A DNA stretch of 41,484 nucleotides from Pirellulales bacterium (GTDB lineage Bacteria > Planctomycetota > Planctomycetia > Pirellulales > JADZDJ01), in assembly GCA_035656635.1 (NCBI GenBank), contig DASRSD010000135.1, positions 1 through 41,484 on the forward strand. The letters run 5' to 3'. The notes beneath the pieces are model-generated. The model was not told where the DNA came from and did no database searches. It saw only the letters and a list, made by a program, of their open reading frames with translations. The translations under genes were made by a program, and so were the position numbers. Of the stretch, positions 82-19,449 are shown piece by piece (positions within the stretch are counted from its first letter, which is position 1; every line of letters starts with the position of its first letter).

Positions 82-242
82 GATTCTGACTCCAGTCGTC
101 TTTTAATTCTAATACCGCCACATATGTAATTGTAAGAACACGCGTATCAGCGTCAATGTGGCAGCCTGCCATTATACATCAACAAAACAAACGGCAAAAT
201 TGCTGTTTTCTCGGCCATTCTGGCCACAACACAAGGGATTTT

Positions 243-892
243 ATGTCTGCTCCGAATCGCGAACAATTCGCCAACAACGCATCGACAACGTTGGCATCTT
301 CCGCCAACACGTCCACTACATCGCTATCGCTGAGCGATGGCTCCAGCTTTCCGTCTACCGGCAATTTCCGCCTACTCGTCGGCACTGAAATCATGCTCGC
401 CACAGTCCGATCATCGAATACCGTAACGGTAATGCGCGGTCAGGAATCGACTACCGCCGCTTCGCACACCGGCGGCGATGACGTAACGCACGTATTGACC
501 AGCGGCGCTTTGCAACAAACTGGCGCGGATAACGTGCCGCTGTGGGGAGCCATGCCAGCGCTGAACACACTGAACGGTTTGAGCGCCAGCGATTTTACCG
601 TTGTCGATAGCTCTGTGGCTTCGTCGCTTTCAGATAGTGCTGGCGGCTTAGTGTTTACAAAGCCAGCGACGAGTGGCCTGGATCACTCAGTCGCTGTAAT
701 TATATCGCCCAGTGCGCCGTATTCGTACATCGCTGCCATTCAACTACTCATTCCATCGACCAGCGGCATTTCATCCGGCGGCATGACGCTGTACAAAGCA
801 TCTAGCGGCGAGCACTATGGGCTGGAAGTCGGGATGAACAATAATGTAAACGGCTACCAGTTCTGGAAGGTAGTCAAGTATAGCGAGATGCC
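243..892 (+). pseudogene. Phage tail-fibre-like protein, 5' part, split by a transposon
   Basis: The frame begins MSAPNREQFANNASTTLAS and soon reaches segments such as SFPSTGNFRLLVGTEIML and VMRGQESTTAASH. That pattern is common in phage tail-fibre or tail-tip proteins: a short beta strand, a 'value at this position' motif and an R-G-Q-E-x-T-T-A turn. An in-frame start 29 codons upstream exists, but the ATG at 243 is where family-like sequence begins. The frame is broken at 892 by the transposon. Its continuation is at 4185-4440 in the same register once one 8-bp target copy is removed. Reading on into the transposon only gives a short nonsense tail to 923. The exact tail role is inferred from composition and motif, so the family call is moderate. 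Confidence 0.7.
885..892. repeat. Left target-site duplication GAGATGCC
   Basis: The 8-bp sequence GAGATGCC directly precedes the left terminal inverted repeat. It recurs directly after the right one at 4177-4184. Eight to nine bases is the usual duplication length for IS1-family elements. Confidence 0.9.
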
Positions 893-913
893 GGTAGTGG
901 GTCAGTTTGAAAT
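893..913 (+). repeat. Left terminal inverted repeat
   Basis: This 21-bp repeat begins GGTAGTGGGTCAG. It matches the reverse complement of 4156-4176 at 20 of 21 positions, with T or C at position 3. It also encodes the last residues (I-S-N) and the stop codon of the transposase. Confidence 0.9.
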
Positions 914-1786
914 CTGTTTTTGACGCGGACGGTATTTGCCGCGTTTTTTCGCGACAATCAAAGGCAGCAAATCGACCATTTCCTCAATTGACCACTTATG
1001 GTCTGAAACGCCCGCTTTCATCGCTGGCGTGCTGCGGAGCGTTTGGTGAATCCGCACGAAGTTATGGTACATGAACATGATGGCGATGCTGTAGGCCAGC
1101 ATGTCGGCCTTTTTGGAAAAAGCGTTTACTAATCGCGTGAATCTCCGATTGTTCATTCTGATATTCAGATTCTGACGTTCCGCGTAACTCGTCGAAACGA
1201 AGTCCGGATCAGGATTGCCCATAACGGCATGTTTCTTCGCGCCTAAGCACTTCGCTGGCGAATACCTAGTGTCCGGTTTCTCGTCTGGCTTGCCGTAGAC
1301 TTTAATGAGCATGGCATAGTCAATCTTGCTGCCGAAATAGTTTTCGACCGCATCCAAGTAGACGCGATTGCCGTCCGTGGTCAACTGCACGCGGTTTGCC
1401 AACCGTTCCACAACGGTGGACATAAACATGTAAGCATTGGCCGAATCGCGGGAGCCAAGCTGCCACGCGAAAAGCAATTTCGTGTCGGCACAAAGTGCCG
1501 TCCAAGTCCACATACTGCCGACGCCCGGCTCGCCCTTCATTTCATCCGGCACGTTCTTGTCTTTGCAGTAACAGAAGTTCCAGATTTCGTCGCACTCAAC
1601 TCGTTTGCAATGCAGGTTGCGAAACGCTTGGTGTTGGAATTCCAAGCAGGCTTCACCCAGTTCGCGGGTTAGCTTTTGGATCGTGTTCTTGGAAATGCCG
1701 GTAATCCGCACAGTTGCCCGAATCGAGCAACCATCGACTAGGCAGCGAATCACGGCACAACGCTGTTCTTTGGTGAGTTGTTTCAT
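902..1786 (-). CDS. IS1-family transposase (single ORF)
   Basis: The 294-residue DDE transposase cuts and joins the ends of the surrounding element. The N-terminal ~50 residues form a helix-turn-helix-like segment (SIRATVRITGISKNTIQKL) suited to binding the terminal repeats. Candidate catalytic acidic residues lie in CDEIWNF, TTDGNRVY and SYAERQNL, in the order D-D-E. The C-terminal RRFTRLVNAFSKK and YHNFVRIHQTL motifs are typical of the long single-frame IS1 subgroup, which needs no ribosomal frameshift. The frame is intact from the ATG at 1786, and its stop lies in the left terminal repeat. It is divergent from the passenger genes. Family assignment is confident; activity is not proven. Confidence 0.9.
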   Translation of the reverse strand: MKQLTKEQRCAVIRCLVDGCSIRATVRITGISKNTIQKLTRELGEACLEFQHQAFRNLHCKRVECDEIWNFCYCKDKNVPDEMKGEPGVGSMWTWTALCADTKLLFAWQLGSRDSANAYMFMSTVVERLANRVQLTTDGNRVYLDAVENYFGSKIDYAMLIKVYGKPDEKPDTRYSPAKCLGAKKHAVMGNPDPDFVSTSYAERQNLNIRMNNRRFTRLVNAFSKKADMLAYSIAIMFMYHNFVRIHQTLRSTPAMKAGVSDHKWSIEEMVDLLPLIVAKKRGKYRPRQKQISN

Positions 1787-1927
1787 GCCATCATTATGCT
1801 TGAGCGGTCAAGGTTTGTCAAGAACATTTTATGACTTTATCATATAGTCCTATTGCATCAAAAACCGATAGATGGTATGCTGGTTATTGTGGCAAGGAAA
1901 GCCCCTTTCGGATTTTCGGAGCATGCA

Positions 1928-3055
1928 ATGGCGAAATCCCCCGGCGACTTTATTAGTGAAGAATTGGCGGCGCGTGATTGGACTCAAACCGATCTGGCCA
2001 TCATCCTCAAAAAGCCGCTTCCAACGGTTAATCGGATATTGCTCGGCAAGCATGCGATCCTGCCGGAAATGGCGATCGCGCTTGGGGAGGCATTCGGTAA
2101 TGGGGCGGATATTTGGACGCAACGTGAAGCAACATATCGTCTTTCTCTTGCCGAACCGGCGGCGGATGATGAGGTAAGGCGGCGTGCGCGATTGTTTAAT
2201 CTCGCACCGATAAAAGAAATGATGCGCAGGGGGTGGATTAGCTCGACTGACGAGACGGAAAAACTAGAAAAAGAGCTATGCAGTTTTTTTGGAGTGACTT
2301 CCTTAGATAATGATCCATCGATTGGTGCTGTTACCCGAAGATCAACCGGCGACGAACCACTTACCCCAAGTCAGCGAGCGTGGTGCTACCGCGTCCGTCA
2401 GCTTGCATCTGCGCAGGCTGTGCCGCAATACAACTCCGAACGGATTGAGGAATGCAAGCGCGCGCTTCGCAAAGTAGCAGCCTTTCCACAGGAAACTCAC
2501 AAAGTGCCAGCCATCTTGGCATCATTTGGAATTCGCTTTGTCATCGTCGAACCTTTAACTGGGACAAAAGTTGATGGAGTAGCTCTCTGGATTGACGATT
2601 CGCCAGCGATCGGTCTCTCCTGTAGGCTGGATCGGTTTGATTCTTTTTGGTTTACACTTGGCCATGAACTTACGCACGTCGAAAATCATGACGAAGCACC
2701 TTTGGATAGCGAACTGTCGGCAGAGACAGCAGCGGACGACATTGAATCGCTACAGTCAGTTAAACCTGCAATGGAGCGCAAAGCTGATGCCGGCGCTGCG
2801 GCAATGCTTATTCCGCCAGCAGAAATCAACTCGTTCATCAAGCGAGTGGGTCCGCTATATTCCAAAATAAAGATTGTTCAGTTTGCAAACAGGATTAAGA
2901 TTCATCCGGCGATTGTCGTCGGTCAATTACAGCATCGTGGCGAGATTGGCTATCATGCCAACCGTGAAATGCTCGCCAAGGTGAAAAACTACATTCTCCC
3001 TACTGCAATCACGGACGGCTGGGGAAACACAATTGATCCACGGAGTCTTGCATGA
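1928..3055 (+). CDS. HTH (HigA-like) plus ImmA/IrrE metallopeptidase protein
   Basis: The 375-residue protein begins with a HigA-type helix-turn-helix (about residues 5-65: SPGDFISEELAARDWTQ, then PLPTVNRILLGK). It ends in a COG2856 ImmA/IrrE-like zinc peptidase domain with the motif LGHELTH near residue 246. In this family the peptidase usually cleaves a repressor or the protein itself acts as an antitoxin-like regulator. The ATG at 1928 is chosen because the HTH begins there and a GGAG lies 7 bases upstream; longer frames back to 1853 use TTG. No separate HigB-like toxin precedes it. Its TGA overlaps the ATG of the next gene, so the two are translationally coupled. This is the main passenger of the transposon. 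Confidence 0.85.
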   Translation: MAKSPGDFISEELAARDWTQTDLAIILKKPLPTVNRILLGKHAILPEMAIALGEAFGNGADIWTQREATYRLSLAEPAADDEVRRRARLFNLAPIKEMMRRGWISSTDETEKLEKELCSFFGVTSLDNDPSIGAVTRRSTGDEPLTPSQRAWCYRVRQLASAQAVPQYNSERIEECKRALRKVAAFPQETHKVPAILASFGIRFVIVEPLTGTKVDGVALWIDDSPAIGLSCRLDRFDSFWFTLGHELTHVENHDEAPLDSELSAETAADDIESLQSVKPAMERKADAGAAAMLIPPAEINSFIKRVGPLYSKIKIVQFANRIKIHPAIVVGQLQHRGEIGYHANREMLAKVKNYILPTAITDGWGNTIDPRSLA

Positions 3056-5581: not shown

Positions 5582-6178
5582 TCACCACGCGCCACGTAGC
5601 ACAGCATAGACTGTTGGCCGACTCACTTGGCACGTTCGCGAAATGCTGCTGATTGATTCGCCCGCTCTGTGCAGTTTGCGAATCGCTGTGCTCTTGTCGG
5701 CAACGGCTTTCGTTTGCGTGCCGACTTCACGGCCGCCCCAAGTCTTGCCGTTCGCGCGTGCTGCCGCTTGACCAGCAAGTACACGTTCCGCACGGCATTC
5801 GGTCTCAAACTGCGCTACACTTGCAAGCATATTGGCCAACATTCTGCCAGCCGGCGTACTGAGGTCGATTCCTTCACGCAACGAAACCAAGTTGATTGAA
5901 CGGTGTTGTAAATCGTGGAATAATGCTGTTAGTCCGCGTGCGGTACGTCCGAGCCGATCCAAACGCCATACAACAATCGCGGCCACTTCGCCAAGTTCAA
6001 TAGCCGATTGCAAGCGTTGCCATCCTGGCCTATCCATCGTTTTACCAGTGAACTTGTCACGATACCAAACGACTGGCAGCGTTTGGGCAGTGGCCCAACG
6101 CTCTAAATCGGGTAGCTGCGAGCGATGGTCCTGGCGTCTACTGCTAACACGTACATAAATTGCAACGTGACGTTTCAT
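5582..6178 (-). CDS. Serine recombinase (resolvase/invertase family)
   Basis: The ~198-residue protein catalyses site-specific DNA strand exchange through a serine. The catalytic serine sits in the N-terminal YVRVSSRRQ motif. The conserved VWRLDRLGRTARGL block, the ISLREGIDLSTPAGRM-type block and the E-rich helix (FETECRAERVLAGQAAARANG) follow in the usual order. A C-terminal helix-turn-helix (SISSISRTCQVSRPTVYAVL) ends the protein. The ATG at 6178 is chosen over the longer frame because MKRHVAIYVRVS is the family start and AGGAG lies 8 bases upstream. It is divergent from the gene at 6328. It may resolve dimers of the element or invert or excise DNA; its sites are not evident. Confidence 0.9.
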   Translation of the reverse strand: MKRHVAIYVRVSSRRQDHRSQLPDLERWATAQTLPVVWYRDKFTGKTMDRPGWQRLQSAIELGEVAAIVVWRLDRLGRTARGLTALFHDLQHRSINLVSLREGIDLSTPAGRMLANMLASVAQFETECRAERVLAGQAAARANGKTWGGREVGTQTKAVADKSTAIRKLHRAGESISSISRTCQVSRPTVYAVLRGAW

Positions 6179-6327
6179 GGTGATTGCTCCTACTTCAAGC
6201 ATGGTCCACAATCCGCCGATTGTCAAACTTGATTTATAGACGGAAGTAGACAATTCGGCGTTGTCGTAAGTCGCTTATTTGCGTGGCCAACAGCCACGAT
6301 TCACAGTGAGGGTTCAAGTTTTACAAT

Positions 6328-6762
6328 ATGGGCGTGGAAAGTTGGCAAGTGTGCGAAATCGTCAACGCGGACGGCTTGCCCGTGCGCGTGATACCGCTGC
6401 GCATCGGCGATGAGTTGCCTGCGCTGGAGCCGGGCGAGTCTCTAAGCTGGTTAGCCGCTGCGTGTCTGATAAGCGGCAATGCGGCCCGCCGGCTAGCGAG
6501 TGAGCGTTTGAAGATGATCGGCCGTTGGAATGATGGCCAGCCGGAATGGCTGCGTCAGCGCGTGCCGAGTGGTACGGGCAAACAGCCGCCCCGACCAGTC
6601 TATCGGCAGTGCGCCGGCGGCGTGCAGCGGTTCCCGTCGATCCGTTTGGCGGCAAAATCAGCCTGCAAATCTAGGCGATGGTTGCACTTGCGACTGATTG
6701 ACGGTTTTGCCGATTGTGACGGTTGTACTTGGCATGACGATTTTGACGGCGAAACCGCATAA
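6328..6762 (+). CDS. Hypothetical protein of the element
   Basis: The 144-residue frame starts MGVESWQVCEIVNADGLPV. The first ~85 residues are ordinary globular sequence with a possible helix-turn-helix-like stretch (SLSWLAAACLISGNAARRLA). The last third is arginine- and cysteine-containing (FADCDGCTWHDD). No family is recognised. A TACAAT -10-like sequence directly abuts the ATG. It is the last gene before the repeat array at 6863-7282, so a link with replication control is possible but not shown. Confidence 0.5.
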   Translation: MGVESWQVCEIVNADGLPVRVIPLRIGDELPALEPGESLSWLAAACLISGNAARRLASERLKMIGRWNDGQPEWLRQRVPSGTGKQPPRPVYRQCAGGVQRFPSIRLAAKSACKSRRWLHLRLIDGFADCDGCTWHDDFDGETA

Positions 6763-6862
6763 CCGGTGTTAGTGAACGGGCGTTCAACCGCGCGAGGCAC
6801 AGTGCGCGCAGAAGTGAGATTTGCGAATTCTGACAGATTCCCTACGCGTTGATCGCTGTCAC

Positions 6863-7282
6863 AACGCGTTTACAAGTCAATTTCTCTCATTTCACCAATT
6901 AGTAAAGATATGCAGATCAGAGAGCGCGCGACGCGGAGAGCAAACGCAATGACAGTGAAACCAATGCAATGACAGCCGGAGCCGATTGCCACCGTTAATG
7001 GATAATTTTGCCGCTTTTCGCCAATTAGTAATGGTAGGAGCCGAAGAGCAGAGGCTGAATTAGGGACTGTCAGTCCACTCCGATTCGCACGCTAGATCAC
7101 GCAAAAGAGTAGTTTCCGCCTATTAGTATTAGTAAGCGTGGAAAGAAATCTTTGAAATTTGAACGCGTTTTTGGATCAATTTGCCGTTTTTCGCCCATTA
7201 GTAATAGCAAGGAGAAAGATTAGAGAATTCTCAACGCGTTCTAAAGTCAAAACGGTAGTTTTCGCCCATTAGTAATAGTGAC
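6863..7282. repeat. Composite iteron-like array, candidate replication origin
   Basis: The gene-free stretch 6763-7332 carries three exact composite units AACGCGTT-N27-ATTAGTAA at 6863-6905, 7162-7204 and 7233-7275. Two degenerate units have ATTAGTAA-like cores at 7024-7031 and 7122-7135. The last two exact units share the longer core TTTTCGCCCATTAGTAATAG. The fixed 27-base spacing puts the two half-motifs at a constant helical offset, as for a protein that contacts both. The array sits just upstream of a small replication-type gene and the primase-helicase, where P4- and plasmid-like elements keep their origins. Function is inferred from position and regularity. Confidence 0.7.
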
Positions 7283-7332
7283 TAGCCAATCTGCGGCGAA
7301 GTTCCGCAGCCAAGTTATAGGAGTTTGAAGTA

Positions 7333-7599
7333 ATGCACGTCGATCTAAGTAGATTCATCCTTGAGCGCTGCCAGCGCACAGTGCCTACAGTTTCAACCAG
7401 CGTAAAAACAGTGCTGGACGCTTTCCGCGCTCAACTGGACGCAGCCCAACAGCGGCAATGGGGCCGCACGAAGTTCATTAACGAACTAAGCCGCGAGTTC
7501 AAAGTTGAGTTCGACCGCAGTCAGCGATGGGCAATTTGCGGACTGGCACTGTTGCCGGAATCGCAGCCGCGTTTCGCCGGCAGCCATCTTATCCAATAG
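7333..7599 (+). CDS. Small winged-helix-like protein upstream of the primase
   Basis: The 88-residue protein starts MHVDLSRFILERCQRTVPTV with a good AGGAG 9 bases upstream. The pattern 'ERC ... V-S-x-S-V-K-T-V-L-D-A-F-R-A ... W-G-R-T-K-F-I-N-E-L-S-R-E-F' resembles the C-terminal winged-helix domain found at the end of many P4/D5-type primase-helicases. The primase here ends with a similar block. A stand-alone copy between the iteron-like array and the primase suggests an origin-binding or loading role, but this is inference. It is followed by the GGTACC cluster. Confidence 0.6.
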   Translation: MHVDLSRFILERCQRTVPTVSTSVKTVLDAFRAQLDAAQQRQWGRTKFINELSREFKVEFDRSQRWAICGLALLPESQPRFAGSHLIQ

Positions 7600-7604
7600 C
7601 CAGC

Positions 7605-7710
7605 GGTACCAAGGTACCAAGCGGTACCAAGGATTCCTGGTCTCTCCGTGTAGAAGAAATCAATAGAGTACAAACCCATAATCGCTGGTACCGGCTGGTA
7701 CCTTGGTACT
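7605..7710. promoter_or_regulatory. Cluster of GGTACC palindromes before the primase gene
   Basis: GGTACC occurs at 7605, 7613, 7623, 7687 and 7697, and a sixth near-copy GGTACT at 7705, all within 106 bases. The left trio (spaced 8 and 10) and the right trio (spaced 10 and 8) form an inverted arrangement around a 58-base centre. The primase ATG at 7715 follows at once. This is likely an operator for autoregulation or part of the origin. The basis is sequence pattern only. Confidence 0.6.
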
Positions 7711-7714
7711 TTCA

Positions 7715-9928
7715 ATGCTCAATCACGCACTCGATTACGCTTCCAGTGGCTTGTATGTCATTCCACTCAACGAACCGGTCAACGGCGGTTGCTCTTGCGG
7801 CAATCCCGATTGCAAATCCATTGGCAAGCATCCACGCACGCCGAACGGTTTAAAGGATGCCAGCAACGATCCCGCCATAATCCGCAAATGGTGGACCCGA
7901 TGGCCAAACGCCAATATCGGTATTGTGACGGGCGCTGAATCCGGCATCGTGGTTGTCGATGAGGACGAGCGCCATGCCGGCAACGAATCACTGGCGGCGC
8001 TGGAGCAAGAACACGGCCCGTTGCCGCCGACAGCTAAACAGCAGACCGGGGCCGGCTTTCATTTCGTGTTCAAACACCCCGGCGGCAAGATTGGCAATCG
8101 CTCCGGCGTCCGACCTGGAATCGATATTCGCGCCGATAACGGCTACATCGTCGCCGCGCCATCGCGGCATGCCAATGGCAATACTTATCAGTGGATCGTT
8201 CCGCCGGACAATCTGGCGGAGATGCCGAATTGGCTGTTGACCCTCATCAATCCGCCTAAGCCAGCGGCAATGCCAACGGCAACGCAGCCGCCGGGCAATC
8301 TATACGACGCGCTGGCAGCCATGCGGAAAATCAAAATGGTGGACGCCAACGATGGCAGCCGCCGATTGCTGACCTATTGTTGCCGAGCAGTAGAGCACAA
8401 TTTAAGCGACGATGATGCAATCCACGCGATTCGCATCATGCACTCAGAACAGCCATTCCCAAAAGCGTGGTCCGACGACGAAATTCGTCGCCGATTACGC
8501 GACGCAGAAAAAACAGAAGATCGCGGGTCAGTCTTTAATGGCCCTGACCTCTGGCAAGCGGAAGGCCGAACCGATGCCGCCAACGCGCAGCGATTTGTGC
8601 GGCGCTACGGCGCTAATTCTCGGTGGTGCAATCCAACCAGAACATGGTACCGCTGGACCGGTAAGAATTGGGGAGAAGATCAATCCTGTGGCATCGAAGC
8701 AGACGCCAAACAATTTTCACGAGAGTTGTGGCGAGAAGCCGGAAAGATCACGGCAGACCCGGACGCCAGCGACCAGTTGAAAAAGCAAGTTATTGCGTTC
8801 GTTAAGGCAAGCAACAGTGCCAATGGAATTCGGAACATGATCGCGCTTGCCAAGAGTGAACCCGGCATGACGATCCTACCGTGCCAATTCGACACAGATG
8901 CCTACATGTTGAATTGCAACAATGGAACGCTCAATCTCAAAACCGGCAAGCTACAGCGGCATCGGCGCGAAGATTTACTAACGAAGATTGTGGCCGTGGA
9001 TTACAACGCCAGCGAGCAGTGTCCGCTGTTCGTCGCCTTTCTTGAAGGGGTATTTGGCGGCAGCAAGAATCTCATCAAATTCATACAACGGTTGTTAGGT
9101 TACATTCTTACCGGCGACGTTTCGGAACAAGCGCTGATGATTTTTCATGGGGCGGGCAGTAACGGCAAATCTACATTGCTAACGCTACTACTCGCGTTGC
9201 TGGCGGAATATGGCTGCAAGGCACCGGAAAAATTGCTGACGGCAAAGAAACACGATTCGCATCCGACCGAACTAGCAAAGCTTTTTGGCAAGCGCCTGGT
9301 TGTCGCCAACGAAGTCGATGATGGCGCGGAGCTGTCCGAAGCTCGACTCAAAGATTTAACTGGCGGCGACCGTCTAACAGCACGGCGGATGAATGAGGAC
9401 TTTTGGGATTTCGACCCCAGCCACAAAATAATCTTGGCGAGCAACTACAAGCCGACCGTACGCGGCGGCCATGCAATTTGGCGACGGTTGCGATTAGTTC
9501 CCTTTAATCAAAAGTATTGGTCTCGCAGTAAAGGCGAGACCGGCCCGGCAGAGTTGGAAGCCGATTCGCAACTCGCGGAAAAACTCAAAATAGAATATCC
9601 GGGCATTTTAGCGTGGCTTGTCGCTGGCTGCTTGGCATGGCAGCGCGATGGTCTCGGCGTGCCGCCGGAAGTGAACGAAGCCACAGAAAATTATCGAAAG
9701 AGCGAAGATTCGCTGACTGCATTCATTGACGCTTGCTGCGAAATGATGCCCAACGCGACAGCCAACGTATCGGCCGTGGCGGAATCATACCGGGAATTCA
9801 GCGGCGACAACATTACTAGCAGCAAGCTCACGAAATTGCTGACCGGTCGCGGATTCATCAAAGAGAAATCGAGCGACAAAGAAACCAAAGGCCAATGGTT
9901 TTGGCGCGGTTTCTCGCTCTCCGCATAG
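7715..9928 (+). CDS. PrimPol plus D5/P4-type primase-helicase
   Basis: The ~737-residue replication protein combines an N-terminal bifunctional primase-polymerase domain (about residues 5-180) with a C-terminal SF3/AAA helicase. The N-domain holds a CSCGNPDCKSIGKHP zinc-binding-like motif, a GIVVVDEDE acidic motif and RPGIDIRADNGYIVA. The helicase carries the D5_N block (ILPCQFDTDAYMLNCNNGTL), Walker A GAGSNGKSTLL near residue 490, LVVANEVDDG and the ASNYKPTVRGGHAIWRR sensor block. The end is a winged-helix-like segment. TTG at 7703 is possible, but ATG 7715 is the better start. It would initiate and drive replication of the element from the nearby repeats. The frame is intact. Confidence 0.9.
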   Translation: MLNHALDYASSGLYVIPLNEPVNGGCSCGNPDCKSIGKHPRTPNGLKDASNDPAIIRKWWTRWPNANIGIVTGAESGIVVVDEDERHAGNESLAALEQEHGPLPPTAKQQTGAGFHFVFKHPGGKIGNRSGVRPGIDIRADNGYIVAAPSRHANGNTYQWIVPPDNLAEMPNWLLTLINPPKPAAMPTATQPPGNLYDALAAMRKIKMVDANDGSRRLLTYCCRAVEHNLSDDDAIHAIRIMHSEQPFPKAWSDDEIRRRLRDAEKTEDRGSVFNGPDLWQAEGRTDAANAQRFVRRYGANSRWCNPTRTWYRWTGKNWGEDQSCGIEADAKQFSRELWREAGKITADPDASDQLKKQVIAFVKASNSANGIRNMIALAKSEPGMTILPCQFDTDAYMLNCNNGTLNLKTGKLQRHRREDLLTKIVAVDYNASEQCPLFVAFLEGVFGGSKNLIKFIQRLLGYILTGDVSEQALMIFHGAGSNGKSTLLTLLLALLAEYGCKAPEKLLTAKKHDSHPTELAKLFGKRLVVANEVDDGAELSEARLKDLTGGDRLTARRMNEDFWDFDPSHKIILASNYKPTVRGGHAIWRRLRLVPFNQKYWSRSKGETGPAELEADSQLAEKLKIEYPGILAWLVAGCLAWQRDGLGVPPEVNEATENYRKSEDSLTAFIDACCEMMPNATANVSAVAESYREFSGDNITSSKLTKLLTGRGFIKEKSSDKETKGQWFWRGFSLSA

Positions 9929-13903: not shown

Positions 13904-15445
13904 ATGTCTACCATCTTTAAGCGGTCCTACTGGGCAACTGATAACGGCGAGCGCGTTAAGAAGAAAACCAAAGTCTACTACATCAAGTACACTGACGGCG
14001 ACGGCAATCGCCAACGCGTTAAAGGCTTCCGCAGCGCAGAGAAAACGCGCGCACTAGCCGCCAAACTGGAAGCTAAAGCCGCCGAAGGGCCAGACCTTTT
14101 TGCGCGACATCGTGACACGCCGTTGCTTGAACACATAGCCGAATTCAAAAAGAGTTTGGCTGCAAAGAACCGTCCCCAGAAATATATCGACCATAAAGCC
14201 AATCGCATCACAGTGCTGTTCGCGGGATGCGCCTTCAAGGTATTCGGCGACGTAAATGTAGCAGCGATTGAGAATTGGCTTGCCGAACAGCGTAAAACGA
14301 AAAAGCGATTCGGGATCAAAACGTCAAACTACTATTCAAAAGCAGTTAAGCAATTCTGTCGCTGGGCGGTGAAAAACGACCGGGCTGCAAAGAATCCGGT
14401 TTTGCATTTAGAGGAGTTGAACGCGAATACTGATATTCGTGTTCAACGCCGCGCACTAGCGACGGACGAATTCGACAGACTGATTGACGCCGCACGGGCT
14501 GGTAAGCCATTCCGGTATCTTTCAGGCCCGGACCGGGCGATTCTCTATCTTGTGGCCGCAAACACTGGTTTACGTGCTGAGGAACTACACAGCTTAACCC
14601 GTGACGGTAACTTTCAGCTTGACGCCGAGCCGCCTACTCTGACCGTCCATGCCACCAAATCGAAACACAGAGAGGAAGATATTGTTCCGCTACGCACGGA
14701 GCTAGTGACTCTGTTACGCGAGTGGATGCCGGCGACGGGGCCGCTGTGGCCCGGCAAGTGGTATACGCGGGCTGCTGATATGCTCTACGCCGATCTAGCC
14801 TGTGCCCGTGCAAAATGGATCAAAGAATCGCCAAGCGACGCTGAAAGAGCTAAACGTGAAGCCTCAACGTATCTGTGCGCGAAAGATAAGTCCGGGCGTA
14901 GGTTTGACTTTCACGCACAACGGGGCCAGTTCATTACATCGTTAGCACGCGCAGGTGTTCATCCTAAGACTGCCCAAAAACTGGCCCGCCATAAAACGAT
15001 TGCGGTGACGATGAAGAACTACACTCACTCGGAAATTACCGATATGGCGGCGGCTTTGGGCACTGTAAAAAACTGGCCCCAAAACTGGCCCCACGATGTT
15101 GGCAATCAGGGTCAATTCGTGTCTCCGGCTGCCATTTCGACATACGGCAACGAGCATGACGAAACCGACATTCAAACAACACAACACGATGCGCAACTCT
15201 CAGGCGCTAAACACTTTCGTCATCACTCGTCATCGCCCGTCATCAAAAATCATAGTGGCCGAGGCGGGGATCGAACCCGCACGAGGGTAACCCCTCGAAG
15301 GATTTTAAGTCCTTTGCGTCTGCCATTCCGCCACTCGGCCAAAACGCTGGTTTTTCAGCGTTTTTGTACTACTCTTGAAGTAGGGGAAGTAGCCTACTAC
15401 ACCAGCGACTACACTCCGACCGCCTTCAAGAGAGCTAGATTTTAA
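13904..15445 (+). CDS. Tyrosine integrase, reading frame runs antisense through a tRNA gene
   Basis: The 513-residue frame encodes a tyrosine recombinase that inserts and excises the element. The N-terminal core-binding region is at about residues 65-165. The catalytic domain shows Arg in ANTGLRAEEL, then H-A-Q-R in FHAQRGQFITSLARAG, a second His in KLARHKTIAV, and the nucleophile Tyr in MKNYTHSEI. The family normally ends soon after the tyrosine, near residue 380. The remaining ~130 residues include GDRTRTRVTPRRILSP, which is the antisense of tRNA-Leu at 15256-15340, so the frame reads through the attachment site. AGGAG lies about 8 bases before the ATG. The int-tRNA arrangement fits integration at that tRNA. 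Confidence 0.9.
   Translation: MSTIFKRSYWATDNGERVKKKTKVYYIKYTDGDGNRQRVKGFRSAEKTRALAAKLEAKAAEGPDLFARHRDTPLLEHIAEFKKSLAAKNRPQKYIDHKANRITVLFAGCAFKVFGDVNVAAIENWLAEQRKTKKRFGIKTSNYYSKAVKQFCRWAVKNDRAAKNPVLHLEELNANTDIRVQRRALATDEFDRLIDAARAGKPFRYLSGPDRAILYLVAANTGLRAEELHSLTRDGNFQLDAEPPTLTVHATKSKHREEDIVPLRTELVTLLREWMPATGPLWPGKWYTRAADMLYADLACARAKWIKESPSDAERAKREASTYLCAKDKSGRRFDFHAQRGQFITSLARAGVHPKTAQKLARHKTIAVTMKNYTHSEITDMAAALGTVKNWPQNWPHDVGNQGQFVSPAAISTYGNEHDETDIQTTQHDAQLSGAKHFRHHSSSPVIKNHSGRGGDRTRTRVTPRRILSPLRLPFRHSAKTLVFQRFCTTLEVGEVAYYTSDYTPTAFKRARF
15256..15340 (-). tRNA. tRNA-Leu (UAA)
   Basis: The minus strand folds into a full cloverleaf with a long variable arm, as in leucine tRNAs. The acceptor stem is GGCCGAG / CTCGGCC with discriminator A. 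The D-arm is GCGGAATGGCAGACGC. The anticodon stem AAGGA / TCCTT closes the loop CTTAAAA (anticodon TAA). The variable arm is CGAGGGG-TTA-CCCTCG-like, and the T-arm is GCGGGTTCGATCCCCGC. CCA is not encoded. This is the likely attachment site of the flanking elements. Confidence 0.95.
15301..15341 (-). repeat. att-like repeat: 5' half of tRNA-Leu, intact copy
   Basis: These 41 bases (tRNA 5' end through the anticodon loop) recur at 18722-18762 in the same orientation with two mismatches. Direct repeats of part of a tRNA are the classic mark of integrase-mediated insertion. The break point at the anticodon loop is a known crossover position. Confidence 0.75.
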
Positions 15446-15868: not shown

Positions 15869-16661
15869 CGACAACTTGAACTGATATACTTTTTGTCACG
15901 CCCCAAAGTATTAAGCCGTCATCGTGAGTTAGATTTATCTTGTGGGCATGTTCTTTATGCGGATGGATGTAATTGCGAAAATCTCGCAATACTTCTCCAA
16001 CATCTTTCGCGGATTTTGTGATCCATTTCAATTCGTGCGCCACGTCTATATAGTCTTTGAGCGCCCAGTCTTTTAGCTTTAGTGGATCACCGGTAGTTTT
16101 ATCTTTCGGCGCTGCTTTAGCAGTGAAGATCGGTGATTTATTGGATTCTAAATTCACTCGTGCAAGTAAGAGCGCTTCAAGCAAGCCACCCATCATCACT
16201 GCCGCTGCAAAATTTGCTCCGCCCTTCGTACACAATCTGGTTTCGTTCCATCGACGCACAAGAATCTGCTGCAATTCCTGGTCGGGTGCTAACTTTGAAA
16301 ACTGAGGCGGCTGGTCATCCAGCTTGGTAGTATTCGGATCGAACAGCACTAACTTTGATCGTAATGAGACAAGTGTTTTCTTCGCGGCTTTGATTTCTTT
16401 TCGAGTGTTCGCACGAGATGGACGGCCTTCGTTTGCTTCGAGCAAGGCTTGATATACTTCGTCGATAGGAAGTATATCGCCACTTTCACAGCACGGCGCA
16501 ATTGCAGCCCGATGCGTAACTAGCCAGGATAAGTAAAACGCCTTGAGATAGGCATGTTCTTCTGTAGTGCCTATCTGCGGGGTCGATTTCTTTCCAAGTT
16601 GTGTGAGTGCCTTGGTAGCTTCCTCAATAGCTGCATCAATGGCTGTTAGCATGTCAGGCAT
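15855..16661 (-). CDS. HEPN-like domain protein, candidate RNase
   Basis: The ~268-residue protein starts MPDMLTAIDAAIEEATKALT at ATG 16661, with GGAG 9 bases upstream; GTG 16676 is an alternative. The N-terminal half is helical. The C-terminal half carries a HEPN-type pattern: the hydrophobic helix AVMMGGLLEALLLARVNLES, then IDVAHELKWITKSA and the final RDFRNYIHPHKE. The latter fits R-x4-6-H, the active-site motif of HEPN ribonucleases. Such domains act in toxin-antitoxin, abortive infection and RNA-cleaving systems. It follows the winged-helix-like gene by a few bases and is probably co-translated. Catalysis is inferred from the motif only. Confidence 0.65.
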   Translation of the reverse strand: MPDMLTAIDAAIEEATKALTQLGKKSTPQIGTTEEHAYLKAFYLSWLVTHRAAIAPCCESGDILPIDEVYQALLEANEGRPSRANTRKEIKAAKKTLVSLRSKLVLFDPNTTKLDDQPPQFSKLAPDQELQQILVRRWNETRLCTKGGANFAAAVMMGGLLEALLLARVNLESNKSPIFTAKAAPKDKTTGDPLKLKDWALKDYIDVAHELKWITKSAKDVGEVLRDFRNYIHPHKEHAHKINLTHDDGLILWGVTKSISVQVVASVP

Positions 16662-16679
16662 TGCCGGGAACTCCACCAG

Positions 16680-17270
16680 CTATTTGCCTGATCGTTTTGC
16701 TTTCTTGGCCGCCTTTTTCTTTTTAGCCGGCCGCCTTGTTCGTTCTGTTCCGTTACTTTCTTTACTGGGCAAAACCATCGCAACTAAATTTTCGCCAACC
16801 GAGTTTAACCGATACTGACCTCTTTCCCCTTTGTCGAGTATCCCTTGATGATGTGCGTTAATCAAAACTTGCAATGGTCTACTGGGACGTTTGCGAGCCA
16901 CGAGACGACAAGCGGTAAGTAAATCCTCTGCCGTGATTGCTTCTTTTCTTTGATCAACGGGTGCCTCAAACTTGTAATAGTAAGCAATGGCTGCTGCAAA
17001 TTGATTATCACTCTTGGGAATCTTCGCCGCGATGAACGATCTAATATCAACTTGATGATGATCGTGATGCTGCGTGGCGGGGTGAGCTAATGTAGCGGGC
17101 GGCGTTCCTCTAAATGAATCATGCTGTGGAATCCCAGTAGTCTCCAGCCCTAACTTTTCTTGAACCCAACGTATCAATCGTTGCTGATCTTCTTTTTTAA
17201 AAGCCTTGAGCGCATCAAAAACAATGCGCACGGCATCGAATTCGTCGGGTGTTTTTGATCCAGTGGTCAT
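16680..17270 (-). CDS. Winged-helix-like protein with lysine-rich tail, partner of the HEPN gene
   Basis: The 196-residue protein has an N-terminal helical region (DAVRIVFDALKAFKKEDQQR, a likely dimer helix) and a histidine-rich linker. A conserved-looking core follows (DIRSFIAAKIPKSDNQFAAA, then YYYKFEAPVDQRKEAITAED). A winged-helix-like end comes next (LINAHHQGILDKGERGQYRL, then VGENLVAMVLP), and the tail is very basic (RRPAKKKKAAKKAKRSGK). I recall proteins with the IPKSDNQFAAA-type core in mobile regions of several phyla, but cannot name a family. Nucleic-acid binding is inferred. It directly precedes the HEPN-like gene. Confidence 0.6.
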   Translation of the reverse strand: MTTGSKTPDEFDAVRIVFDALKAFKKEDQQRLIRWVQEKLGLETTGIPQHDSFRGTPPATLAHPATQHHDHHQVDIRSFIAAKIPKSDNQFAAAIAYYYKFEAPVDQRKEAITAEDLLTACRLVARKRPSRPLQVLINAHHQGILDKGERGQYRLNSVGENLVAMVLPSKESNGTERTRRPAKKKKAAKKAKRSGK

Positions 17271-17453
17271 GTTGGTTGCCTAGTCTAGCTGGGTAAGATT
17301 GAATTGCTGGCTGGCTAACCAATGAAGATACCCGCCCAACGGTAGTAAAGATAGGAGGTCTGCGCACCCTGTAGGGCCAGATTTATCCGAAGATAATAGC
17401 TTGGTGGAGCGTATCGCCACAAATCAGCGATGGCCGCAACGCGGGCAAATGCG

Positions 17454-18527
17454 TCACGGGTTTTTCTTGAGCACGCCGGGAACATTCTCAGCCGTGGGTG
17501 ATGTCGGCTTCACTGGCAATCCGGTCAATTGGCAAAGCCACTGAATAACCTCACATGCAGCCTCGTAGGCTTTTTGCGCCTCTTGCTTTGTGGGTTTATA
17601 ACCTTCGTGGACAACACGGTGGCGAATTTTTTCGGACGCTCTGAATCGAGTGTAAAGATCATCTGCTTCTTCTTTCAAACTGTATCCCCAAGTCTCCTTG
17701 AGTCTACACCGCAACATAAACGATAGCTCGCCTTCATCTTCTTCTGGCTCAGCTTTCGTTTTTCCTTTCTTTCTTTGCTTGTATAACGTTTTAGCAAGAT
17801 TCTCGACAGCAATATAAGACGAGATCAAAACAAATCTATAATTACTGCGGAAAAGAGCTACGCATGCTTCAGCAAGCACTTCATTAGCAATATCTTCCAG
17901 CGATGGGCTTCCTACCTTTGGTAAATCTGAATACGCCTGGGGAATCAAAGAGTGCTGGCTTATGTTAAGAATCGGAGAGGATGACACTGTCTCCCAACGT
18001 TTATTCTGCTCATTCCAAAACAATACGTTGTGATAAACCTGATCGACCTCCCATAGTGAAACCGGCCGTGCTATCCAGCCGATTTCGTAAGGCGCATTTT
18101 TCTGCCAACGAAGTATCAGGTCACTCAGTGCTTCGAAGCATCCTTTAGTTTTTTCGTAGGCGTCTGCGGTTGCATCACCCTGCTTAGAAAATTCTTTTTG
18201 CTGTGTAAAAACGGCCTCGCCTTTCTGTGGCCGATTGGAACCTTTAGGAGGAGCCGAAGTTTGGGTCTTACCAACTAAGCCCGCAAGCACTGGGTGAAGG
18301 CCACCCGTCCATTCGTTTAACATATGCAATTGGTCAAAGTGATTATGGATTTCTAGTTCGAACTGCTCAGCCCCAATCATTGGCATTTCGTGAAGGGGTT
18401 CCTTTTGCGGCCAAAAAAATGGCAATGGGATGTGTACTGACCAACGGAAACGCCCGCCCTCTAACGCGGGATCACTATTTTCAGTCGATAAAATCGCTTG
18501 CGCTTCGAAGCCGGGGATTGCGTTCAT
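17454..18527 (-). CDS. Second HEPN-like protein of the island
   Basis: The 357-residue protein starts MNAIPGFEAQAILSTENSDP. The N-terminal two-thirds is of unknown type, with tryptophan-rich segments (WSVHIPLPFFWPQKEP, EIGWIARPVSLWEVDQVYHN). The C-terminal ~130 residues look HEPN-like: YRFVLISSYIAVENLAKTLY, then FRASEKIRHRVVHEGYKPTK, then AYEAACEVIQWLCQL. R-H-R-V-V-H fits R-x4-H. It lies 183 bases upstream of the 17270 gene on the same strand and may share its unit. Together they form a two-HEPN, one-winged-helix set. Alternatives: an unrelated helical protein with a chance motif. Confidence 0.6.
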   Translation of the reverse strand: MNAIPGFEAQAILSTENSDPALEGGRFRWSVHIPLPFFWPQKEPLHEMPMIGAEQFELEIHNHFDQLHMLNEWTGGLHPVLAGLVGKTQTSAPPKGSNRPQKGEAVFTQQKEFSKQGDATADAYEKTKGCFEALSDLILRWQKNAPYEIGWIARPVSLWEVDQVYHNVLFWNEQNKRWETVSSSPILNISQHSLIPQAYSDLPKVGSPSLEDIANEVLAEACVALFRSNYRFVLISSYIAVENLAKTLYKQRKKGKTKAEPEEDEGELSFMLRCRLKETWGYSLKEEADDLYTRFRASEKIRHRVVHEGYKPTKQEAQKAYEAACEVIQWLCQLTGLPVKPTSPTAENVPGVLKKNP

Positions 18528-19449
18528 ATCGTGGAGACAACTTCTTTCACAGAGTGTCCAGCGTAACCAAAAAGATACAAAATCCGAAAAATGAGCCGGG
18601 TGTACTACACCAATCAGCTTGTATTTACTTGTATTTGGTCACATTCTTGACTGTGACGTAAAGCCAGCGGCGCTAAGAATTTGCCCGAGAAAACCCGTAT
18701 CAAACGCAAGTCGCGTTTTTCGATTTTAAGTCCTTTGCGTCTGCCATTTCGCCACTCGACCATTTACGATGATTATTGCATCTTTAGTTTGTCGATCACA
18801 GATGCCCTGGACAGCATTTGGGCAATCGCGTCCATAGCGGTTGGGGAATTTGATCTGACATGCATTGATCTTAGGCGCGCCGAATTCCAAGGAGAAGCTC
18901 GAAATGCCTCGGCAATCAGCGCCAAAATCTCACCTGTGAATCAGACCGGGCAGCCTGCACACGTTTGCTTTCGCCGGCTGCCGGCCGCCTGCTGCTGCCT
19001 GCTAGAGTGGCCCAATTCGGTTGTTGCATTCTGAACGCATGTACATTATATTGCCGGCTCGGAGTGCATGGGCTCCGCGATTGGTCTTTGGCAATTTGAA
19101 AAACTTTCATGACGCTGCAGCGGCGGCCGAGATTGCTGCGCGCAGCGGTGTCTGGCCAAAGAGTGTCTCTGGTCAAAAACTGGGCCAGGGCAAAGTCGGT
19201 TGGCGAGAATAGCGGCCCAGGAATATCAGACCCTTAGGCTATCGCCGCTCAATGCCAGCCGTCACATCATGTTGGCATTAATTCGCCGACAATTCGCCCC
19301 GGCGGACGTAAAGGGAGCGAATTCTGCCAATCAGCCAGTGTGAATCGCTCGGAGAATTGCAAGCAAAACGCCGCAGCCCGACGCGCACAATTGGAGAGTT
19401 TTGTCCAGGAATAAAAATCCTAGTTAAAATTGCCAAAACCAACCCGCGC
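18528..19449. other. Gene-free stretch holding the island border
   Basis: About 920 bases have no convincing gene. It includes the promoter region of the minus-strand 357-residue gene, the degenerate tRNA repeat at 18722-18762 and then ordinary intergenic DNA. Frames at 18681-19034 and 19021-19212 lack start signals and protein-like content. Confidence 0.6.
18722..18762 (-). repeat. att-like repeat: degenerate 5' half of tRNA-Leu
   Basis: This second copy of 15301-15341 has 39 of 41 positions identical and the same orientation. It covers the tRNA 5' end to the anticodon loop only; the 3' half is missing. The acceptor end GGTCGAG would still pair with CTCGGCC through one G-U. It may thus be the original host 5' half, displaced when an element supplied the present one. 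This defines a likely right border of the 15.3-18.7 kb island. Confidence 0.75.

What the first reader, a model, noticed from the sequence alone, without database searches (positions are those of the whole stretch)
6863..7275. Composite iteron array AACGCGTT-N27-ATTAGTAA
Three units share exactly the same 27-base spacing between two conserved 8-mers, with two more degenerate copies, in a 570-bp gene-free stretch before a PrimPol-helicase. Fixed spacing points to one protein contacting both half-motifs. This looks like an undescribed origin type for a P4- or plasmid-like planctomycete element.
Basis: partly seen in the sequence, partly recalled or inferred. Interest (0 to 1): 0.8.

Follow-up and report, generated by a model that had tools for sequence, protein, structure and literature searches.

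The report
Repeat array beside a likelier origin
A bacterial mobile DNA element carries five copies of an unusual DNA motif in front of its DNA-copying genes, but copying more likely starts at a neighbouring hairpin-like repeat of a kind seen beside most of the related copying genes examined, so the motif array is probably a control site and not a new type of start site.

Summary
The array is real. Five ~47-bp units lie at 6863-7279. Three carry AACGCGTT-N27-ATTAGTAA exactly; the other two keep only the right half, TTTYCGCC-N-ATTAGTA. The motif was found only in this element: 0 of 365 other genomes of its order, no hits in viral or species-genome contigs.

A better origin candidate lies about 330 bp further on: a 104-bp inverted repeat (7606-7709) with three GGTACC-type iterons per arm, between the 88-aa gene and the primase. 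A repeat of that layout follows the primase gene in 34 of 49 relatives, against 9 of 283 control ORFs. This is the published PICI/pRN1 origin plan. The 88-aa protein weakly but distinctly matches the primase-helicase C-terminal domain, and the inverted repeat starts just after its stop.

Best reading: the tRNA-Leu-integrated element replicates from the stem-loop; the composite array is a binding-site cluster in the control region of its replication operon. No binding or replication was tested.

The parts
6863..6909 (+). array unit 1 (exact AACGCGTT-N27-ATTAGTAA)
6989..7035 (+). array unit 2 (left 8-mer 4/8, right 8-mer 8/8)
7087..7133 (+). array unit 3 (left 8-mer absent, right 8-mer 7/8)
7162..7208 (+). 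array unit 4 (exact)
7233..7279 (+). array unit 5 (exact)
7333..7599 (+). 88-aa protein; stand-alone relative of the C-terminal (origin-binding type) domain of D5/P4 primase-helicases
   Evidence: profile match 13.7 bits and 17.5 bits, E 8.5e-4, best of 3862 ORFs of 60-200 aa; low-confidence all-helical model
7605..7628 (+). left iteron set, GGTACC at 7605, 7613 and 7623
7687..7709 (-). right, inverted iteron set, GGTACC at 7687 and 7697, GGTAC at 7705
7606..7709 (.). 104-bp inverted repeat (30-nt arms, 44-nt loop): best candidate for the replication origin
   Evidence: score 20.0 against a maximum of 10.5 in 6 shuffles; begins directly after the stop of the 88-aa ORF, 6 bases between; DNA fold z -6.1
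7715..9928 (+). PrimPol + D5_N/P4-type primase-helicase (ATG at 7715 is my choice of start; the frame is open from TTG at 7703)
   Evidence: PF09250, PF08706; TIGR01613
13904..15445 (+). tyrosine integrase; its frame runs across the tRNA-Leu gene
   Evidence: PF00589; PHROG 1
15256..15312 (.). 57-bp attachment repeat within the tRNA-Leu gene; exact second copy on contig C139

Best explanation
The array is a five-copy binding-site cluster in the control region of the replication operon (88-aa gene, stem-loop, primase-helicase) of an integrative element; it is not itself the origin. Replication most likely starts at the 104-bp inverted repeat 7606-7709. There an initiator of the D5/P4 type (the primase-helicase C-terminus and/or the 88-aa stand-alone version of that domain) binds two opposed sets of GGTACC-type iterons and the helicase opens the A+T-richer loop. 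The 88-aa protein, or another regulator of the element, binds the composite units (right half in all five, left half in three) to set expression of the operon, and perhaps to titrate initiator or hold copies together. Shown here by sequence: the array, the stem-loop, its counterpart in most relatives examined, the domain kinship of the 88-aa protein, the integrase and the att repeat. [quoted passage not shown]
For: Position directly upstream of the operon, all units in one orientation. 21 relatives tested lack the array, but 34 of 49 have an inverted repeat scoring at least 11.5 in the zone from 20 bases before to 200 after the primase stop, against 9 of 283 control ORFs of the same loci. The window has none there (10.5, shuffles up to 11.0) but has one of score 20.0 directly after the 88-aa stop. 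Relatives' iterons are of like size and in one case of like sequence (L040 arm GGAACCTTGG; GGTACCTTGG here). The Thermaerobacter plasmid (primase 40% identical over 96%) has a 3+3 inverted layout 5' of its primase (score 24.0; fold z -8.8). The 88-aa protein is the best of 3862 ORFs for the C-terminal domain profile. Published, passages only: the E. coli PICI origins compared always show two iteron sets flanking an A+T-rich region (PMC6092414); the pRN1 origin is a 100-bp stem-loop and its authors suggest that this type of replication protein assembles at such structures (PMC4234260); the C-terminal domain of a D5-type helicase binds its putative origin (PMC7581432).
Against: No promoter-like or terminator-like site was found in 6760-7720. 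The array is A+T-richer (43% G+C) than the element (53%), which would also suit an origin. 15 of 49 relatives score below 11.5 in the 3' zone. The stem-loop lies inside the operon and could be an RNA control element. No binding, expression or replication was measured. Structure models are low in confidence and show no wing; the fold search gave no useful match.
Confidence: 0.55

Rival explanations
1. The composite array is itself the origin (or an essential half of it): five iterons bound by one initiator that contacts both half-motifs.
For: Direct repeats in an A+T-rich gene-free stretch before the replication genes; spacing kept at 27 in three units although spacers differ.
Against: No counterpart upstream of the 21 relatives' primases tested; an alternative origin structure exists in most relatives examined and in this window; two of five units lack the left half-motif.
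Confidence: 0.13
2. The array is an auxiliary maintenance site: a partition, incompatibility or copy-control locus, comparable with the second cis-acting region of P4 (recalled) or the orf80 region of pRN1.
For: pRN1 orf80 and its upstream region are dispensable for replication but needed for stable maintenance (PMC4234260, passages); here too a gene for a small protein related to a DNA-binding domain follows the repeats.
Against: No partition protein was recognised among the 20 ORFs scanned with Pfam (not every ORF of the element); an integrated element needs partition only while excised; no such array is seen in relatives.
Confidence: 0.25
3. The stem-loop 7606-7709 is not an origin but an RNA attenuator or translation switch before the primase gene, and the origin is elsewhere.
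For: It lies inside the operon and folds very stably as RNA (-49.5 kcal/mol, z -6.1).
Against: In most relatives examined the like structure lies 3' of the primase, where it cannot control the start of that gene; iteron triplets in opposed orientation are not needed for an attenuator.
Confidence: 0.15
4. The array is a relic of duplication with no present function.
For: No copy in relatives tested or in 365 other genomes of the order.
Against: In units 1, 4 and 5, blocks at 83-100% identity are separated by a spacer at 41%, which even decay would not give (inference).
Confidence: 0.07

Closest known systems
PICI replication module (pri-rep-ori; PMC6092414)
   Same: Own primase-helicase; two opposed sets of short iterons flanking an A+T-richer stretch next to the gene; integrase and specific attachment site
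   Different: In the window the stem-loop lies 5' of the primase, after an 88-aa gene; an extra composite array is present; no helper phage or packaging gene shown
pRN1 plasmid replicon (PMC4234260)
   Same: AEP primase plus helicase plus C-terminal DNA-binding domain; ~100-bp stem-loop beside the gene; small regulator gene before the replication gene
   Different: Archaeal plasmid; stem-loop lies 3' of the gene; no composite array reported for pRN1 in the passages read
SCCmec Cch2 replication operon (PMC7581432)
   Same: D5-type helicase whose C-terminal domain binds a putative origin with short direct repeats beside its gene
   Different: Polymerase and helicase are separate proteins; three 5-nt iterons; no composite array in the passages read
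Thermaerobacter sp. FW80 plasmid NZ_CP037897.1
   Same: Primase 40% identical over 96% of length; integrase; small HTH gene before the primase; 3+3 inverted iterons (GTGAAC/GTTCAC) 5' of the primase
   Different: No composite array; the stem-loop follows a MerR-family gene
Satellite phage P4 (cnr-alpha, ori and crr; recalled)
   Same: Small gene before the primase-helicase; two cis-acting replication regions
   Different: P4 regions share one short iteron (recalled); here array and stem-loop show no shared motif; membership not tested

Membership tests
PICI/pRN1-type stem-loop iteron origin | two opposed sets of short iterons flanking an A+T-richer stretch | tested here: met
   GGTACC-type x3 and x3 inverted; loop 40% G+C against 53% for the element part in the window
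PICI/pRN1-type stem-loop iteron origin | adjacent to a primase-helicase gene of AEP + D5/SF3 type | tested here: met
   ends 5 bases before the ATG at 7715; domains
PICI/pRN1-type stem-loop iteron origin | lies 3' of the replication gene | tested here: not met
   3' side scores 10.5, below its shuffle maximum of 11.0; the structure is 5' of the primase and 3' of the 88-aa gene
PICI/pRN1-type stem-loop iteron origin | supports replication with its initiator | not testable with these tools
   needs a replication assay
Classical iteron origin (the array itself) | multiple direct repeats in one orientation in an A+T-rich region | tested here: met
   five units, 43% G+C
Classical iteron origin (the array itself) | conserved with the initiator gene in relatives | tested here: not met
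   absent upstream of 21 relatives' primases and, as an exact core motif, from 365 other genomes of the order; relatives are no closer than about 40-50% in the primase
P4-like or PICI satellite | integrase with tRNA or other specific attachment site | tested here: met
P4-like or PICI satellite | helper-phage dependence, packaging or capsid-modifying genes | tested here: inconclusive
   20 window ORFs scanned with PHROGs: no terminase match; one protein (156-923) with matches to tail-fibre families and, at 6e-4, a virion structural family; not every ORF scanned

The most novel reading that the evidence does not exclude
A split replication initiator: the origin-binding domain of a primase-helicase has become a separate 88-aa protein that keeps the origin stem-loop directly behind its own gene and also binds a private five-unit composite array before it, so that one small protein couples operon control to origin firing.
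Probability: 0.25. Interest if true: 0.65.

Novelty: new variant of a known kind. Interest (0 to 1): 0.45.

Why it matters
If right, elements with a PrimPol-D5 primase-helicase, found in 36 of 396 genomes of this order at E <= 1e-60 with the own genome included, mostly share a recognisable stem-loop origin. That would make their origins predictable from sequence and could give replication vectors for bacteria that have few. The window would be a natural case in which an origin-recognition type of domain stands apart from the helicase, with a private operator-like array added.

Tried and rejected
Array as origin: not favoured, because relatives tested lack it and most examined have another structure. 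Array elsewhere: in the own genome only these five and one single 1-mismatch site on C146; not in 365 other genomes of the order; no exact hits in viral or species-genome contigs (records very near the window's genome may be left out there). Array units as folded elements: no stable fold in units 1, 4 and 5. Array core inside relatives' origin zones: best 9.5 bits, within shuffles. 88-aa protein by sequence in solved structures (one chance hit), by fold (nothing at E <= 0.001), by NCBIfam (chance), by PHROGs (none) and by Pfam (ENT domain, 21.1 bits, below its cut-off of 28.5, judged spurious). 88-aa homologues in 396 genomes of the order: six marginal hits at E 0.002-0.01 besides itself, three of them without a stop in frames of 89-121 aa; their loci, with short flanks, hold no primase match and they were not followed further. 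Remnant of an older primase upstream of the 88-aa ORF: nothing below E 0.1 in the part of the output shown (output cut at 3000 characters). Exact opposed k-mer scan: besides the window, L042 (k 6, 7), L047 (k 6), L048 (k 7) and L034 (k 8) exceeded their 40 shuffles. Scan with one mismatch: L034, L039, L049 and the window exceeded their 12 shuffles. These scans alone were too weak to carry the case. The search for related loci with the primase found nothing in two collections. Three paper searches on planctomycete elements or satellites (no paper; 90: 10 of 19 listed; 92: 2) showed, by their listings, no paper on such an origin; none of the planctomycete ones was opened.

Full report
OBSERVATION. 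The composite motif is present as described. AACGCGTT-N27-ATTAGTAA occurs three times (6863, 7162, 7233), all here and nowhere else in the held 4.9-Mb genome. A matrix made from the five units scores them 39.8-56.3 bits; the next best place in the window scores 9.0, and each unit scores 11.7-43.4 with a matrix of the other four. Block identities: left 8-mer 100% in units 1, 4 and 5, but only 4/8 and 1/8 matches in units 2 and 3; 18-base inner spacer 38% over all pairs; TTTTCGCC block 85%; ATTAGTAA 95%. So the core is the right half, TTTYCRCC-N-ATTAGTA, exact in four units and with one mismatch in unit 1, and the left palindrome is present in three. Self-comparison of the 1.5 kb upstream of the primase gives scores of 28, 25, 22, 19 and 17, against at most 14 in 15 shuffles.

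SURROUNDINGS. The order is: a 144-aa ORF ending at 6762; the array; an 88-aa ORF 7333-7599; a 115-bp gap; a PrimPol + D5_N primase-helicase, for which I take ATG 7715 as start. A tyrosine integrase frame (13904-15445) runs across a tRNA-Leu gene (15255-15340). A 57-bp piece of that tRNA gene (15256-15312) recurs exactly on contig C139. This is the expected mark of integration into a tRNA gene. If C139 abuts the window's left end, the element is about 18 kb; no overlap of 15 bases or more between the contig ends was found, so the join is inferred. Chromosomal-type genes are seen from about 19.4 kb on.

THE STEM-LOOP. The 115-bp gap holds three GTACCA and three inverted copies (score 9 against at most 7 in 40 shuffles), forming a 104-bp inverted repeat 7606-7709 with 30-nt arms and a 44-nt loop (score 20.0 against at most 10.5 in 6 shuffles). 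It folds strongly as RNA (z -6.1) and as DNA (z -6.1).

RELATIVES. Primase matches, own genome included, were found in 25 of 57 related genomes (E <= 0.001), 36 of 396 of the order (E <= 1e-60) and 2 of 392 of the phylum (E <= 1e-110), besides phage and plasmid records. Not all matches were fetched or examined. Upstream of the primase, 21 relatives were tested for direct repeats; one more (L045) was too short. Two exceeded their shuffles: L051 (22 against 14, a repeat of period 22 about 1.25 kb upstream) and L052 (16 against 15). Neither has the array's units, and no relative has AACGCGTT or ATTAGTAA in the scanned stretch. By contrast, in the first set 21 of 30 relatives have an inverted repeat (loop 25-100) scoring at least 11.5 in the zone from 20 bases before to 200 after the primase stop, against 9 of 283 other ORFs of at least 150 aa in the same loci; the medians are 13.0 and 7.0. 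In the enlarged set it is 34 of 49, with L054 too short.

LIMITS OF THAT COUNT. The cut-off 11.5 was chosen after a first look. The rows are not independent: several come from one genome, and L052/L053 and L062/L063 are near-copies. When the second set was added (18 loci), nine loci whose match did not reach the C-terminal half were left out; four of them were long enough to score and gave 7.0-10.5 (L017, L019, L023, L026), so counting them would make it 34 of 53. The controls were drawn from the first set and the window only. Fifteen of the 49 fall below the cut-off: L018, L034, L038, L041, L043, L061, L062, L063, L070, L071, L094, L098, L100, L101 and L102. Among them, L034 has its repeat upstream, L043 and L101 have one that lies or ends beyond this zone (20.5 and 18.5 in the 500-base zone), and L041 is the broken own-genome copy, whose frame end is not the true gene end. 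L038, one of the better matches (46%), has none. Upstream, besides the window and L034, L040 (13.0), L050 (16.0, ending at the frame start) and L053 (11.5) also exceeded their 6 shuffles by more than 1.

The arms of the higher-scoring repeats hold evident iterons, for example GTGTGAACAGTGTGAACAGTGTGAAC (L067), AACGGAACAAACGGAACAAACGGAACC (L095) and GGAACCTTGG (L040). In 30 of the 34, the 5' arm starts within 30 bases of the stop; the range is -19 to +101.

LINK TO THE WINDOW. The window has no such repeat after its primase (10.5 against 11.0 in shuffles), but has one directly after the stop of the 88-aa ORF (6 bases between, score 20.0). A profile of the primase C-terminal domain (24 sequences, the window primase included) gives the 88-aa protein 13.7 bits; the best of 2000 shuffled versions gives 7.9. 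I made this test after noticing the likeness by eye. A profile from 41 sequences gives 17.5 bits, E 8.5e-4, the best of 3862 ORFs of 60-200 aa from the loci held and the window; the next scores 8.3. A plain pairwise comparison with the window primase shows nothing in that domain (best E 0.032 elsewhere). Single-sequence models of the 88-aa protein and of the primase C-terminus are low in confidence (mean pLDDT 63 and 67) and show helices only. So the window looks like 'initiator-type domain, then origin, then primase-helicase', whereas most relatives examined have 'primase-helicase with C-terminal domain, then origin'. The Thermaerobacter plasmid also has its inverted repeat (about 2798-2903 of L034, score 24.0) before its primase, just after a MerR-family gene.

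COMPARISON WITH PRINT. From passages only: the E. [quoted passage not shown] The pRN1 origin is a 100-bp stem-loop (21-nt stem and 58-nt loop predicted at 75 C); its authors suggest that AEP-helicase-winged-helix replication proteins assemble at such stem-loops, and they judge iteron-like repeats of a phage, one kind 47 bp long, not to be its origin (PMC4234260). The C-terminal domain of the D5-type SCCmec helicase Cch2 binds its putative origin, and Cch2 binding needs the direct repeats (PMC7581432). The original SaPI origin papers were not held. P4 details are recalled.

MECHANISM. Most likely the stem-loop is the origin and the array is a binding-site cluster controlling the 88-aa/primase operon, bound by the 88-aa protein or another element protein. 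The fixed 27-base spacer in the three full units, with diverged spacer sequence, suggests that both half-motifs are contacted by one complex there; the two right-half-only units suggest that the left contact is not essential. No sigma-70-like promoter was found in the region, so operon control is inferred from position. Auxiliary roles (copy control, partition) remain open.

VERDICT. Observation confirmed; the origin claim for the array is not favoured; the element type is supported. New variant of a known kind.

Noticed in passing
window 1853-3055 (+): 400-aa HTH + IrrE-type protease protein matching the PD-Lambda-2 defence component B model (E 2.6e-41), so the element seems to carry a defence gene.
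   Followed up: partly
window 18722-18762: 41-bp copy (39 of 41 identical) of the 5' half of the tRNA-Leu gene, 3.4 kb beyond the intact gene; may mark a second, tandem insertion, which holds a protein with a weak HEPN match (17454-18527, 18.5 bits, below cut-off).
   Followed up: partly
L041 (G000:C142), about 16112-17886: A second, broken PrimPol gene in the same genome, about 50% identical, without array and with no inverted repeat above cut-off in the zones scanned.
   Followed up: partly
the 49 relatives: 34 of 49 PrimPol-D5 genes examined are followed by an inverted repeat that often holds opposed short iterons, which would make their origins predictable.
   Followed up: yes
window 5582-6253 (-): Small serine recombinase of the invertase/resolvase kind (PHROG 125, E 3e-49) close to the replication region; no crossover site was sought.
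   Followed up: no
window 156-923 (+): 255-aa protein with a tail-fibre-like match (PHROG 8469, E 1.3e-11).
   Followed up: no
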